Of a DNA stretch of 6,338 nt, positions 1-6,338 are shown piece by piece (position 1 is the stretch's first letter; the number at the start of each line of letters is the position of its first letter). A program made the translations under genes and the position numbers. The stretch lies in contig JABIQT010000810.1 in NCBI GenBank assembly GCA_018667995.1, positions 1 to 6,338 on the forward strand, written 5' to 3'. Source of the stretch: Candidatus Latescibacterota bacterium. GTDB lineage: Bacteria; JAAXHH01; JABIQT01. The notes below the pieces were generated by a model. The model was not told the DNA's origin. It made no database searches and saw only the letters and a list, made by a program, of their open reading frames with translations.

Positions 1-170
1 CTGATTGGGCCAGTCCCATCCGGCGCACCCACCACTTTCAGTGATGGATCTGGTGGATCCGTCGGACCGTACGAGCTCTGAAGCGTTTTGTGGGCAATAC
101 GCCCATATCGCCGCAACTCGGGCGTTTCGTATTTTGAAATTCCTTGTGTCTTTACACGATCGGTTTTCAC
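1..170 (-). CDS. Candidate lasso-type RiPP precursor peptide, 3' end cut by window edge
   Basis: Small gene read leftwards; 56 residues are visible and the frame is still open at the window edge. The start is GTG at 168-170: an in-frame TAA lies one codon upstream and a GAAAGGA Shine-Dalgarno sits 7 bases before the GTG. Seen in the protein: Y14-x2-P17-x-L19-x3-G23-x5-T29 (YETPELRRYG, then RIAHKT). This is the leader pattern of lasso precursors, which is bound by the PqqD-like RRE protein; such a protein is encoded just upstream in the same direction. The leader is basic and the part after T29 is rich in Pro, Gly and Asp (QSSYGPTDPPDPS, later GAPDGTGP). By the family rule that Thr is the penultimate leader residue, the core would start at Q31, with D38 at position 8 as ring acceptor. 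Gln at position 1 would be unusual. It could also be a related RiPP that is not threaded. The leader call is fairly secure, the product class less so. Confidence 0.75.
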   Translation of the reverse strand, partial: MKTDRVKTQGISKYETPELRRYGRIAHKTLQSSYGPTDPPDPSLKVVGAPDGTGPI

Positions 171-177
171 AAATTAG

Positions 178-184
178 TCCTTTC
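178..184 (-). promoter_or_regulatory. Shine-Dalgarno GAAAGGA that sets the GTG start of the precursor gene
   Basis: On the minus strand GAAAGGA is followed by 7 bases (CTAATTT) and then GTG. It is the only good ribosome binding site near the leader-motif frame. Because TAA closes that frame directly upstream, it effectively fixes the start. Confidence 0.65.
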
Positions 185-260
185 ATTATATTCTAACGTG
201 ATTGTAGACAATCCCCCCAATGAACTGAGATACATCTGGAAGGTACTTCTCCTTTCTCTA

Positions 261-294
261 TTGTGGACACAACGCTGTCTCGTCGGTATACCGA
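261..294. promoter_or_regulatory. Two inverted repeats in the 164-base gap before the precursor gene
   Basis: The gap 171-334 between the cyclase stop and the precursor start has no gene of its own. It holds a perfect 12-base palindrome, TCGGTATACCGA (283-294), and an inverted repeat TTGTG/CACAA with a 2-base centre (261-272). A short hairpin CACCA/TGGTG with loop CCAT lies at 309-322, just after the cyclase stop; it has no T-tract, so it is a poor intrinsic terminator. The palindromes could be an operator or a processing site giving the precursor separate expression. That is inference from symmetry alone. Confidence 0.3.
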
Positions 295-334
295 TCTCAA
301 CGAAGTGACACCACCATTGGTGACATTCCGGTTT

Positions 335-2257
335 TCAAGATGATCTGACCAGGCGGTTGAATGCGCCACCTACCTCCATGGCCCTCAGCCACCCCTCCAG
401 GCAGATTATGAAGGATAGGTACATCGTGCTCATATAGTTATCGGTGCGCTGCAATGAATCGTAAAACGTCTTTGGCACCACATATCCTCGCTCAAAAATA
501 TGGACCACCGGCGCCTCTGTAAACCAACGTCTGACAGTCTCTGGACAGACACTATCCTCGATTGCCGAACTGAATTCTACGCCCCGGTTCTTTACCCTCA
601 CACGCTCCGGAAGAATACCTCTGAGCGCCTTTCTGTGATGGGATCGATTTGCCAGATGCGGGTCAGACTCGTCATGGTTCCATTTCATATCCTGGGGCAT
701 CGAGAGTGATGCCTGGATGAGGCGACGATCCAAATAGGGATGTCGAGGCTCGACCGGTTGCGCGTATTGGGTGAGCACTGTCAGGTTCGGCGAAGTGAGG
801 CCGGCCACAGTTTCCCTAAGAGGCGACGACCTCAGTTGATTTCCATTTATTTCCTCGGCGAGGATGACATGATCCATGTCCTGAATACGACGCTGAACGG
901 AACTGGTGATATATGAAGGAAGATCAAGTATCGCTGCTGCACGCCGTTTCTGTGATAGTACGCCGCTGTTAATCCAAGACATGGGTGCAGCAAGTGGCAA
1001 CAGACCATATTTCAGAAACGACCGCCACGCCCTCCGGCCGTACCTTGCACGATCTACTTTGAATCTGCGTAACGCCTCGCCAACTCGAAACCTTCTCATA
1101 AGATCGTAGTAGACAAGGTAGTTGCCATTATTGACCTCATTGCCGTAACGACCAGTCAGGACCGAGCGACATCCAGCCTCCTCTGCAATATCGTATAGCC
1201 CGTGAATAGCAGGCGGTATGCTGATTTCTAACGGCCCCATTATTTGGCGGGGATACCAATCTGAATCCAGACATTGAGGCGCATACATGCCATCGGCAGT
1301 GAGAAAGTGCGGAGTCATCTTCGGGTTACGGTCGAGCACTGCTTGAATGCACGGACGTTCGTCCACATTTTTCGCTTTCTCGAATACATCGGACAAGGTG
1401 TGTATTGAAAGTCCCAAGGCTTCCGAGATTGGACCGGCAACACTGACCACAGACGTCGAATCCAGGCCTCCGCTAAGTTCCATCCCCACATTCTTTTGGC
1501 GACTTCGCAACCGGCACCGCACAGATTCCTTCAATGTGGATAGGTAGGATTCCACGACCTCATCCTCTGACAATTTTTCCCGGCCTGATGTTTCCCAGAA
1601 CCAATACTGACGGATACTCATCTCTCCATCAGCTGCCCGCATGGCCGAACCCGCCGGCAGAACGTTAAGGTTACGAAAGTACCCTTGATCCCAGCCGGAC
1701 CGGGACAGGAATGTAGTCGTCAATTGGCTTAGAAACTGATCCTCGTCCACTTCACAGGGGATGGCGGGATCTTGAAAGATCTGCGTCCTGTCTGAAGCGA
1801 CCAATAGTCGCTCCCGATCGCTATAGTAGAACAGCGGTCTAACCCCAGAAGGATCTCGAGCAGCAAAGAGCGTTCTGGTTTTCGTATTCCAAATAGCAAA
1901 GGCAAAGTCACCGATCAACTTCTCCGCGCAGGCCTCGCCAAATGCTTCATAGGCGGCCAGGATCAGTGCCGTGTCGGTACCGTTAACCGGGCTACGGCTT
2001 CCAAGAATCCCTAGTACCTCTTCTCTGTTATCTATGCGGCAACTCGCTACTATTCTCAATGCACCTGAAACCACCGGTGAACCAGGCTCATCTTCGGGGA
2101 GTGTCGCCAGATCCGCCTGCGCCAAGCCAACAGCCCCATCCATCCACTTCCAGGCGCCATCAGGACATCGATGGCGAACACAGCCTATTGCTGAATCCAG
2201 AACGGACGGATCGACAGGTTTGCCTTGCCAGTGTATAGACGCAAATATAGCGCTCAT
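335..2257 (-). CDS. Asparagine-synthetase-like lasso peptide macrolactam cyclase (C protein type)
   Basis: 640 residues with the asparagine synthetase B layout: an N-terminal class II amidotransferase fold (about 1-210) and a C-terminal ATP-dependent synthetase domain (about 235-620). Visible motifs are RIDNREE (74-80), GDFAFAIW (116-123), RDPSGVRPLFYY (134-145), the PP-loop SGGLDS (262-267), TGRYGNE (368-374), RHPYLD (505-510) and a late basic segment around KALRGILPERV (543-553). The N-terminus reads MSAIF: the Cys2 nucleophile for glutamine hydrolysis is absent, as in lasso cyclases and beta-lactam synthetases, so free glutamine-derived ammonia is probably not used. In lasso pathways this enzyme adenylates an Asp/Glu side chain and joins it to the core N-terminus. 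The RRE gene lies 14 bases upstream and the leader-bearing small gene downstream, which favours this role over ordinary asparagine synthesis or an exopolysaccharide amidotransferase. Upstream of the ATG the site is weak (GGTG and GG within 12 bases), so translational coupling to the preceding gene is likely. Confidence 0.8.
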   Translation of the reverse strand: MSAIFASIHWQGKPVDPSVLDSAIGCVRHRCPDGAWKWMDGAVGLAQADLATLPEDEPGSPVVSGALRIVASCRIDNREEVLGILGSRSPVNGTDTALILAAYEAFGEACAEKLIGDFAFAIWNTKTRTLFAARDPSGVRPLFYYSDRERLLVASDRTQIFQDPAIPCEVDEDQFLSQLTTTFLSRSGWDQGYFRNLNVLPAGSAMRAADGEMSIRQYWFWETSGREKLSEDEVVESYLSTLKESVRCRLRSRQKNVGMELSGGLDSTSVVSVAGPISEALGLSIHTLSDVFEKAKNVDERPCIQAVLDRNPKMTPHFLTADGMYAPQCLDSDWYPRQIMGPLEISIPPAIHGLYDIAEEAGCRSVLTGRYGNEVNNGNYLVYYDLMRRFRVGEALRRFKVDRARYGRRAWRSFLKYGLLPLAAPMSWINSGVLSQKRRAAAILDLPSYITSSVQRRIQDMDHVILAEEINGNQLRSSPLRETVAGLTSPNLTVLTQYAQPVEPRHPYLDRRLIQASLSMPQDMKWNHDESDPHLANRSHHRKALRGILPERVRVKNRGVEFSSAIEDSVCPETVRRWFTEAPVVHIFERGYVVPKTFYDSLQRTDNYMSTMYLSFIICLEGWLRAMEVGGAFNRLVRSS

Positions 2258-2271
2258 GAATACCGCACCGA

Positions 2272-2571
2272 TCAGGTGATTTCAATAAGTCCAACATCCG
2301 ACAGTTCCGCGAGCAATGCCAGCACATCTGTCTCGCACCGCTCCTGATCGATCCCGTATTTATCCATCAATATGGCGACGATCTCATCCAACTTCCGCGG
2401 CTGCTGAATATAATCCCAAATATCCGCACCCACTGGATTCATTCCAAAGTACTCTCCGGATTTCATATCCAGGATGATTTTCTCGTCACCCAAGACATTC
2501 GACACCTGGTCTCCGGCAGCGGCGAAACTGCGGTCTCGCAAATCAGTTATGTTCAATTCGGCTTGGTTCAT
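2272..2571 (-). CDS. PqqD-like RiPP recognition element (lasso B1-type leader-binding protein)
   Basis: 99 residues, the normal size for a free-standing PqqD-family protein. The N-terminal half is beta-rich and carries the typical core: a hydrophobic strand KIILDM (31-36), then SGEYFGMNPVGADIWDYI (38-55), the 'G-x-Y-F-x-x-N-x-x-G-x-x-I-W' signature of the family. The C-terminal half (about 60-97) is helical (LDEIVAILMDKYG, then VLALLAELSDVGLIEI), giving the winged-helix-like RRE fold. In lasso and related pathways the domain has no enzymatic activity; it binds the precursor leader (Tyr, Pro and Leu of YxxPxL) and presents it to the protease and cyclase. It is the first gene of the leftward set. 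The start ATG at 2569-2571 has only a weak AAGAAG-type site about 10 bases upstream. The lasso role rests on the neighbouring cyclase and leader peptide; PQQ synthesis is unlikely because no pqq genes are nearby. Confidence 0.88.
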   Translation of the reverse strand: MNQAELNITDLRDRSFAAAGDQVSNVLGDEKIILDMKSGEYFGMNPVGADIWDYIQQPRKLDEIVAILMDKYGIDQERCETDVLALLAELSDVGLIEIT

Positions 2572-2658
2572 AAAATTGAGGCTTCTTCTTAGTAAAGTTT
2601 TGGGAATGGAATCTATACACTTCAGCTAATCTATTATTAACAGGACTATCGCTCAATC

Positions 2659-2699
2659 GGGAATAACCTTAGAAAACTTGTTATTATCCCTTAGTTTTC
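2659..2699. repeat. Overlapping inverted repeats upstream of the recognition-protein gene
   Basis: Two inverted repeats interlock here. GGGAATAAC (2659-2667) can pair with GTTATT plus CCC (2680-2690) leaving a 2-base bulge. GAAAACT (2672-2678) is a perfect 7-base inverse of AGTTTTC (2693-2699). The left arm of the second sits in the loop of the first, so in RNA they would be alternatives or a pseudoknot. If leftward transcription starts to the right of this point, the structure lies in the 5' leader, roughly 90-130 bases before the ATG. The region is AT-rich, so chance is a real explanation. Confidence 0.3.
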
Positions 2700-3053
2700 G
2701 AATGGCTCACGTAAGTAGCCGTTGTACTGCCCTGATACTCTCGCAGGATTCGTACCAACATTTCGATCCAATTCAGAAATATTGATAATAGAGTGTAACT
2801 AATTGTAAATTGGTTTTTTAAATCTTCCGAACATGGTTAATTGCCTCATCAGAGATGACAACATGTATGATTTCTCATGTATAGATTGTACACAGTTTGA
2901 GCCCACGGTGGGTACGTATGCCCCGGTAACCTGAAAAACGGCTAGTTCCGATTGGGAGAGCGCTGAACGAGGAAAGCTATTTCAAAAGCTTGCTTTCAGC
3001 TGTTTTGCCTATAAATTGTCAACGCGAAGGCTTTAGCTGTTGGTATTCTTGTA

Positions 3054-3060
3054 GAGAGGA
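3054..3060 (+). promoter_or_regulatory. Shine-Dalgarno GAGAGGA that supports the TTG start of the SGNH gene
   Basis: GAGAGGA lies 8 bases before the TTG at 3069-3071, near-ideal spacing. No ATG occurs in this frame until after the first membrane segment, so the TTG is preferred. Confidence 0.7.
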
Positions 3061-3068
3061 AAATAGGT

Positions 3069-4355
3069 TTGGAGAATCGATCATATAGGGATGTGTTTCT
3101 AATCGGTACAGGAACGATAGCCATCATCCTCGGACTCTATTATAACGAATGGATTTTCGCGCCTATTCTTGATCCAGATGGTATCATATCTGGTTGGTCC
3201 AGAATGGCCATTTGGTTGCTTGATCTGAGCCTTCTAAGTATTGGGTGCACTTTGATTCTATTTCGGCACAGAATCCCACCCGAAGTATCGCTTAATATGG
3301 CCTTGGTTTGTGTAGCCATCGCATTTTGTTACGGTATCGGCGAGTTCTACGTGAGATCATTGGGGGCGATGATGGACTATCGCTTTCACTCAGGATTGCG
3401 ACTGGGCGACGATTATCTGCATCACAAACTCGGCCGGAGTCTCTCTACAGTGGCCTCCGGGCGACCCTATCACACCAATTCTGCCGGATTCAGGGATGGA
3501 AGCGCTCGCGAACTGAAGAAAACAAAGGATACGGGATCGAGACTGGTCATTCTCGGGGATTCCTTCACTGAGGCGCCCGACGTCGACTGGGAGGACACCT
3601 ACCTTTCCCGCCTAGAAGGTCTGTTTTCGGCCGATGGCCAGGATTTGGAGATTTTGAACGCCGGTGTGGTCAGCTATGCACCCGGTCTGCACTACAGAAG
3701 GTTAAAGACGTTTCTCGACGAAGGTTTCGGCGCGGACGGTGCGGTGATGATGCTGGATATCTCAGATATTGAGGACGAAGCAATTGTCTACGATGATTGG
3801 GAGGATCGCTGGCGCCATGAGCATTGGACAGCTCTATTCGACCTGAAACCTCGTTTTGTGGTCTTCGTCCGTGACAGAATTCGGACCATGCTGCATCCAG
3901 AAATCGACTATAATCCTATGCCCGAACTCAACATAATCGATATGACCGGGGACCCAAGGCTCTCAGCCAGGGGAAGCTGGACAGAATCCGATAGTTTATT
4001 TACCGAGTGGGGAGCCAAAGGTATTGAAGGCTGCAAGGAGCATATTCTGGAGGTGGCTACACTCTGTGCAGAGAATGATATGAGCTTCGCGCTGGCTATT
4101 TATCCATGGCCACAACAGCTCATGAGCAATGCCAGGCCGTCCAAACATCAAGTAATTTTCGAAGAATTTGCCCGAGAGAACAAGTTGGATTTCTATGACT
4201 TCTTTCCAGCGTTCTACGGTTTGCCAGACTGGGACTCACACTTCATTCCCGTTGATGTACACTGGAATGAAGCAGGGCATAAACTGGTCGCAGACACACT
4301 CTTCAGGTTCCTGACCAGAACTGATATCGAAACAGAGCCCAGTTTAACAGAATAA
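3069..4355 (+). CDS. Membrane-anchored SGNH/GDSL-type hydrolase or O-acyltransferase-like protein
   Basis: 428 residues. Three hydrophobic segments at about 8-30, 46-65 and 73-95 form an N-terminal membrane part; the rest is soluble, probably periplasmic. The soluble part starts with NSAGFRD (137-143), a common lead-in of this group. It continues with SGNH block I GDSF (163-166; nucleophile S165), a block II-like NAGVVSYAPG (197-206) and block V DVHWNEAGH (396-404; likely catalytic D396 and H398). The block III region reads LDISDIEDE (229-237) and lacks a clear GxND, so the oxyanion Asn is uncertain. Family members cleave or transfer ester-linked acyl groups, often acetyl groups on exported polysaccharides; the substrate here is unknown. 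Start is TTG with GAGAGGA 8 bases upstream. The gene is divergent from the lasso-type set and 73 bases upstream of the receiver gene, possibly co-transcribed with it. The SGNH fold is fairly sure, the reaction is not. Confidence 0.75.
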   Translation: MENRSYRDVFLIGTGTIAIILGLYYNEWIFAPILDPDGIISGWSRMAIWLLDLSLLSIGCTLILFRHRIPPEVSLNMALVCVAIAFCYGIGEFYVRSLGAMMDYRFHSGLRLGDDYLHHKLGRSLSTVASGRPYHTNSAGFRDGSARELKKTKDTGSRLVILGDSFTEAPDVDWEDTYLSRLEGLFSADGQDLEILNAGVVSYAPGLHYRRLKTFLDEGFGADGAVMMLDISDIEDEAIVYDDWEDRWRHEHWTALFDLKPRFVVFVRDRIRTMLHPEIDYNPMPELNIIDMTGDPRLSARGSWTESDSLFTEWGAKGIEGCKEHILEVATLCAENDMSFALAIYPWPQQLMSNARPSKHQVIFEEFARENKLDFYDFFPAFYGLPDWDSHFIPVDVHWNEAGHKLVADTLFRFLTRTDIETEPSLTE

Positions 4356-6075: not shown

Positions 6076-6338
6076 TTAGCCCAGATAGCGATTATCCTTG
6101 AACGGTGACACCAGTGGATCCTCGGGGCAGAACAGTTTGCCATCTTTCACCCATCCACAGTCCCTCGACTCCAGTTCCAATATAAGAAACCCCTTCCAGG
6201 TGGACACCTCTCTGGCACGAGCAGGATCGTCAATGAGATTCTTGCACTCCCCCGGGTCACGGTCCAGATCGAAAAATTGTTCGACACCTAATCTCGGCAA
6301 CCAGATGAACTTGCGATGACCATCGGTTACGTACTGCA
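6076..6338 (-). CDS. C-terminal end of a type I (arylsulfatase-like) sulfatase, 5' part outside window
   Basis: Minus-strand frame open from the right edge to TAA at 6076-6078; 86 residues are visible. A TTG inside could mimic a start, but the frame runs on upstream (YVTDGHRKFIW), so this is the tail of a larger gene. YVTDGHRKFIW followed by EQFFDLDRDPGECKNL is the standard sulfatase ending: a strand with the 'D-G-x-x-K-x-I' pattern, then 'x-F-D-L-x-x-D-P-x-E-x-x-N-L'. The last 40 residues include GWVKDGKLFCPEDPL and finish at RYLG. The catalytic formylglycine motif (C/S-x-P-x-R) would be in the missing N-terminal part, so activity cannot be judged. Members remove sulfate esters from glycans or small molecules, usually outside the cytoplasm. 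It converges on the oxidoreductase gene with a 68-base gap and no convincing terminator. Confidence 0.85.
   Translation of the reverse strand, partial: QYVTDGHRKFIWLPRLGVEQFFDLDRDPGECKNLIDDPARAREVSTWKGFLILELESRDCGWVKDGKLFCPEDPLVSPFKDNRYLG

What the first reader, a model, noticed from the sequence alone, without database searches (positions are those of the whole stretch)
1..170. Unmarked GTG-started lasso precursor candidate at the window edge
The minus-strand frame carries Y14-x2-P17-x-L19-x3-G23-x5-T29 at the exact spacing of lasso leaders, preceded by GAAAGGA and a GTG start. It lies on the same strand as, and downstream of, an RRE protein and a Cys2-less asparagine-synthetase-like cyclase. 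Short length, the non-ATG start and position after the cyclase would make it easy for gene finders to miss. The peptide sequence after the leader is not one I recognise from a described lasso peptide.
Basis: partly seen in the sequence, partly recalled or inferred. Interest (0 to 1): 0.82.

Follow-up and report, generated by a model that had tools for sequence, protein, structure and literature searches.

The report
Truncated lasso-peptide precursor beside its cyclase
The short reading frame at the window's left edge is very probably the precursor of a knotted (lasso) peptide, an ordinary kind of gene in an ordinary place, but the enzyme beside it belongs to a rare branch of lasso cyclases that has lost a lysine found in nearly all its relatives.

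Summary
The minus-strand frame 1-170 starts with GTG behind GAAAGGA and carries Y14-x2-P17-x-L19-x3-G23-x5-T29. A leader profile built only from other genomes picks this frame alone out of the window (E 6e-5), and 0 of 3000 shuffled windows score as high. Four precursors elsewhere in the same genome share the extended leader. The frame runs off the contig end, so its stop codon and full core remain unknown.

The lasso interpretation is supported (about 0.85). The neighbours are an RRE (PqqD) and an AsnB-type cyclase with Ser2. The predicted core starts with Gln1 and has Asp8 as ring acid: QSSYGPTD-PPDPSLKVVGAPDGTGPI... Placement after the cyclase is normal: 65 of 78 related loci have it. B2 is not on the contig.

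New here: the cyclase belongs to a rare, well-supported clade (7 proteins, 5 genomes). All members have Gly559 where 86 of 89 other cyclases, and E. coli AsnB, have the Lys reported as essential in AsnB. Members outside this genome sit next to ordinary lasso cores. A sister cluster in the same genome has three precursors without a ring acid at positions 7-9. I rate it a new variant of a known kind; product, activity and topology are untested.

The parts
1..170 (-). Lasso precursor A, GTG start at 170..168, runs off the contig end (stop unknown)
   Evidence: sibling precursors
178..184 (-). GAAAGGA, Shine-Dalgarno-like, 7 nt before the GTG
   Evidence: Read directly from the sequence
84..131 (-). 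Leader motif Y14-x2-P17-x-L19-x3-G23-x5-T29 (Y at -17, T at -2)
   Evidence: published position numbering YxxPxL = -17 to -12 in PMC10368454
57..80 (-). Predicted ring of the core: Q31(1)-S-S-Y-G-P-T-D38(8)
   Evidence: T(-2) rule; acid at 7-9 in 89 of 100 related cores; D8 or D9 in every member of the clade outside this genome. Inference for this peptide
3..56 (-). Predicted tail of the core, incomplete: PPDPSLKVVGAPDGTGPI...
   Evidence: 3' end missing
335..2257 (-). Lasso-type cyclase C (640 aa), AsnB fold, Ser2 instead of Cys2, intact SGGLDS
   Evidence: NF033535 E 1.8e-95 (320.9 bits, cut-off 525); PF00733, PF13537; model pLDDT 91, TsnB9/AsnB/beta-lactam synthetase folds
1457..1474 (-). 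SGGLDS pyrophosphatase (ATP) motif of the cyclase, residues 262-267
   Evidence: S262, G263, G264, D266, S267 invariant in the aligned cyclases
581..583 (-). Gly559 of the cyclase, in place of the Lys of AsnB and of 86/89 other cyclases
635..640 (-). His540-His541 of the cyclase, invariant in the clade, absent from all other cyclases aligned
2272..2571 (-). B1: PqqD-type RRE protein (99 aa)
   Evidence: PF05402 72.9 bits (gathering 23.4); NF033536 69.6 bits (cut-off 80); solved relatives 9x90 and TbiB1 5v1u

Best explanation
Window 1-2571 (-) is the B1-C-A part of a lasso-peptide gene cluster cut off by the contig end. B1 (RRE) binds the YxxPxL leader of A. A B2 peptidase, not on this contig, cuts two residues after Thr(-2) is reached, giving a core that starts with Gln1. 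The AsnB-like cyclase adenylates Asp8 and joins it to the amine of Gln1, closing an 8-residue ring around the tail. Shown by sequence: the genes, the leader, the spacing, the acid at position 8, the cyclase fold, intact ATP motif and clade. Inferred: the cutting site, Gln1-Asp8 closure, threading, the source of B2, and how the cyclase copes without the catalytic Lys (perhaps by His540/His541).
For: Leader profile from other genomes finds only this frame and beats 3000 shuffles. Sibling precursors in the same genome share the leader. RRE and cyclase family matches. Closest relatives outside the genome (49-50% cyclase identity) have B1-B2-C-A order with ordinary cores GTGGVRLD... and GTGGIQRD.... 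Acid at 7-9 in 89/100 related cores against 28% expected from composition. Precursor lies downstream of C in 65/78 loci. The AsnB-family fold of the cyclase is supported by a confident model.
Against: Core residue 1 is Gln, which 8 of 100 related predicted cores have but no proved product that I know of; Asn1 has been shown once, in metanodin (PMC12670498). No B2 on the contig. The cyclase lacks the near-universal Lys. Three sibling precursors in C855 share leader and xSSY but have no acid at 7-9. The 3' end of the gene is missing.
Confidence: 0.85

Rival explanations
1. The leader and RRE are lasso-like, but in this genome the Lys-less cyclases make something other than a 7-9 residue lasso ring, for example a ring closed on a later acid (Asp51 in the window, the Asp of RGWD in the siblings) after a different cut, or an unthreaded cycle.
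For: C855 cores TSSYDPGTT..., TSSYSTIGP... and QSSYAPQRR... have no D/E at 7-9. The C-terminal block RKRxxRGWDKRRRR of two of them is under strong purifying selection (pN/pS 0.16). A loose alignment places an Asp in common (D51).
Against: The window core does have Asp8, and all clade members outside this genome have D8 or D9. The D51 alignment rests on gaps and few sequences; the window/C855-c tails show pN/pS 1.08.
Confidence: 0.1
2. The frame is a decayed or chance frame: a leftover of a duplicated precursor, not translated.
For: Non-ATG start, no stop in view, NF033521 below its cut-off, no B2 next to it.
Against: Frame open over 56 codons with a ribosome-binding-like sequence; profile E 6e-5; mostly synonymous change against siblings; intact RRE and cyclase frames upstream; same position as in relatives.
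Confidence: 0.05

Closest known systems
Lasso peptide clusters with split B1/B2 (cyanobacterial/Chloroflexota/Acidobacteriota type, NF033521 leader, NF033535 cyclase, NF033536 RRE)
   Same: Leader YxxPxL...T(-2), PqqD RRE, AsnB-like cyclase with Ser2, precursor downstream of C
   Different: No B2 on the contig; Gln1; cyclase scores below the NF033535 cut-off and lacks the Lys
Clusters of Chloroflexota MAGs L052 (CP_BM_RX_R8_21), L150 (G152), L151 (G159) and Prochloraceae L053
   Same: Same cyclase clade (41-50% identity, Gly559, His540-His541); precursor after C
   Different: B1-B2-C-A order in L052, L150 and L151 (window has C directly after B1); cores start with Gly or Ser and have D8 or D9; L150 adds an HPr-kinase-like gene, ABC transporter and nucleotidyltransferase
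Clusters C855 and C1103 of the same genome
   Same: Leader Y..P.L.R.GR....TL; C855 cyclases 48-51% identical; both have B2
   Different: C855 cores lack an acid at 7-9; C1103 core NTQQPTGPD has Asn1 and D9 and an HPr-kinase-like neighbour
Metanodin (PMC12670498)
   Same: Non-canonical, amide-bearing residue 1 inferred from T(-2)
   Different: Asn1, not Gln1; product made and supported by mass spectrometry
E. coli asparagine synthetase B, beta-lactam synthetase
   Same: Fold (VIA-align Z 30.0 and 26.5), SGGxDS motif
   Different: Catalytic N-terminal Cys of AsnB absent (Ser2); AsnB Lys450 (Met-numbered; K449) aligned to Gly559

Membership tests
Lasso peptide precursor | Leader YxxPxL at -17..-12 and Thr at -2 | tested here: met
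   numbering from PMC10368454
Lasso peptide precursor | Asp/Glu at core position 7, 8 or 9 | tested here: met
   Asp8; 89 of 100 related cores comply
Lasso peptide precursor | Usual small residue (Gly, Ala, Ser, Cys) at core position 1 (typical, not strictly defining) | tested here: not met
   Gln1. 25 of 100 related predicted cores have Gly1, 8 have Gln1; Asn1 shown in metanodin
Lasso peptide precursor | Complete small frame with stop codon | tested here: inconclusive
   Contig ends inside the frame
Lasso peptide cluster | RRE protein B1 (PqqD) | tested here: met
   PF05402 72.9 bits against 23.4; NF033536 slightly below its cut-off; TbiB1 match
Lasso peptide cluster | B2 leader peptidase (Transglut_core3) | tested here: inconclusive
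   None on this contig; the genome has two, in C855 and C1103
Lasso cyclase | AsnB-like fold with intact SGGxDS motif and no N-terminal catalytic Cys | tested here: met
Lasso cyclase | Lys equivalent to AsnB K449 (conserved in 86/89 others; not a formal criterion of the family) | tested here: not met
   Gly559 in window and six clade members; Lys essential in AS-B per PMC6748925
Lasso peptide | Threaded macrolactam product | not testable with these tools
   Needs product isolation, MS/MS, carboxypeptidase and heat tests or NMR

The most novel reading that the evidence does not exclude
The window's cyclase represents a mechanistically distinct clade of lasso cyclases that forms the isopeptide bond without the lysine held essential in asparagine synthetase B, probably with clade-specific residues (His540-His541, Arg476, Arg590) taking over, and in this genome the clade has spread to precursors whose cores cannot form the usual 7-9 residue ring.
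Probability: 0.3. Interest if true: 0.65.

Novelty: new variant of a known kind. Interest (0 to 1): 0.42.

Why it matters
It adds a probably Gln1 lasso precursor from an uncultivated lineage. It also points to a small set of lasso cyclases, linked in relatives to ordinary lasso cores, in which a supposedly essential catalytic residue has been replaced. That makes the role of this lysine in macrolactam formation directly testable with natural proteins, and the sibling precursors without a ring acid test how far the lasso rule holds.

Tried and rejected
Finding the missing B2 near a contig end: only the C855 and C1103 copies exist. Finding close relatives with the single cyclase in genome contigs gave none; the alignment did. 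Precursor profile in the 15 other genomes of the phylum: only chance-level matches (E 0.12 or worse). More members of the cyclase clade: none further among 400 Chloroflexota and 388 cyanobacterial genomes at E 1e-120 or in viral contigs. Another precursor upstream of the RRE: no second leader in any frame of the window. The idea that the ring uses Asp51 was kept only as a rival, because the alignment is weak. The idea that the downstream position is unusual was rejected. Promoter and terminator scans gave nothing above chance that bears on the question. No solved lasso cyclase stood out in the fold searches: the best rows are TsnB9, AsnB and beta-lactam synthetase. Literature searches for mutational work on this Lys in lasso cyclases found nothing usable.

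Full report
The object. The window is one complete contig (G000:C127, 6338 bp) of a draft genome of 6.06 Mb in 1165 contigs, 85% complete. On the minus strand it holds an RRE protein (2272-2571), an asparagine-synthetase-like protein (335-2257) and, 164 nt further on, the frame in question (170 to the contig end). The other genes are unrelated in appearance: an SGNH hydrolase, a response regulator and a Gfo/Idh oxidoreductase on the plus strand, and the end of an arylsulfatase on the minus strand.

Noticed in passing
L032 (G000:C855) 5640-11856: Lasso-like cluster with two cyclases, one RRE, one B2, two ABC transporters and three precursors whose cores lack an acid at 7-9; two share a conserved basic end RKRxxRGWDKRRRR.
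   Followed up: partly
L033 (G000:C1103) 236-3639: A further lasso cluster with B2, RRE, an HPr-kinase-like protein and precursor MKVYSRPVLRRLGRVEDVTLNTQQPTGPDAQIYADDPYGPV (Asn1, Asp9); its cyclase runs off the contig.
   Followed up: partly
L054, L069, L070, L082, L083, L090, L118, L122: 11 of 100 related precursors have no acid at core 7-9; most of them share a motif like NK(K/E)(L/F)GxxD with the acid at 10-15, suggesting a second core type or a different cutting site.
   Followed up: no
L058, L144, L100: Three other lasso-type cyclases lack the AsnB Lys (Ile, Arg, Leu); L058 and L144 belong to the sister lineage of the Gly559 clade.
   Followed up: partly
window 6076-6336 (-) and L032 11940-13412 (-): An arylsulfatase gene lies near both lasso clusters of this genome: about 3.5 kb upstream of the RRE in the window, directly upstream of the cluster in C855.
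   Followed up: no
L090 9694-11059: Three precursors in a row in a Dehalococcoidia MAG, one with core TWWWWRKRSGPGDQYF.
   Followed up: no
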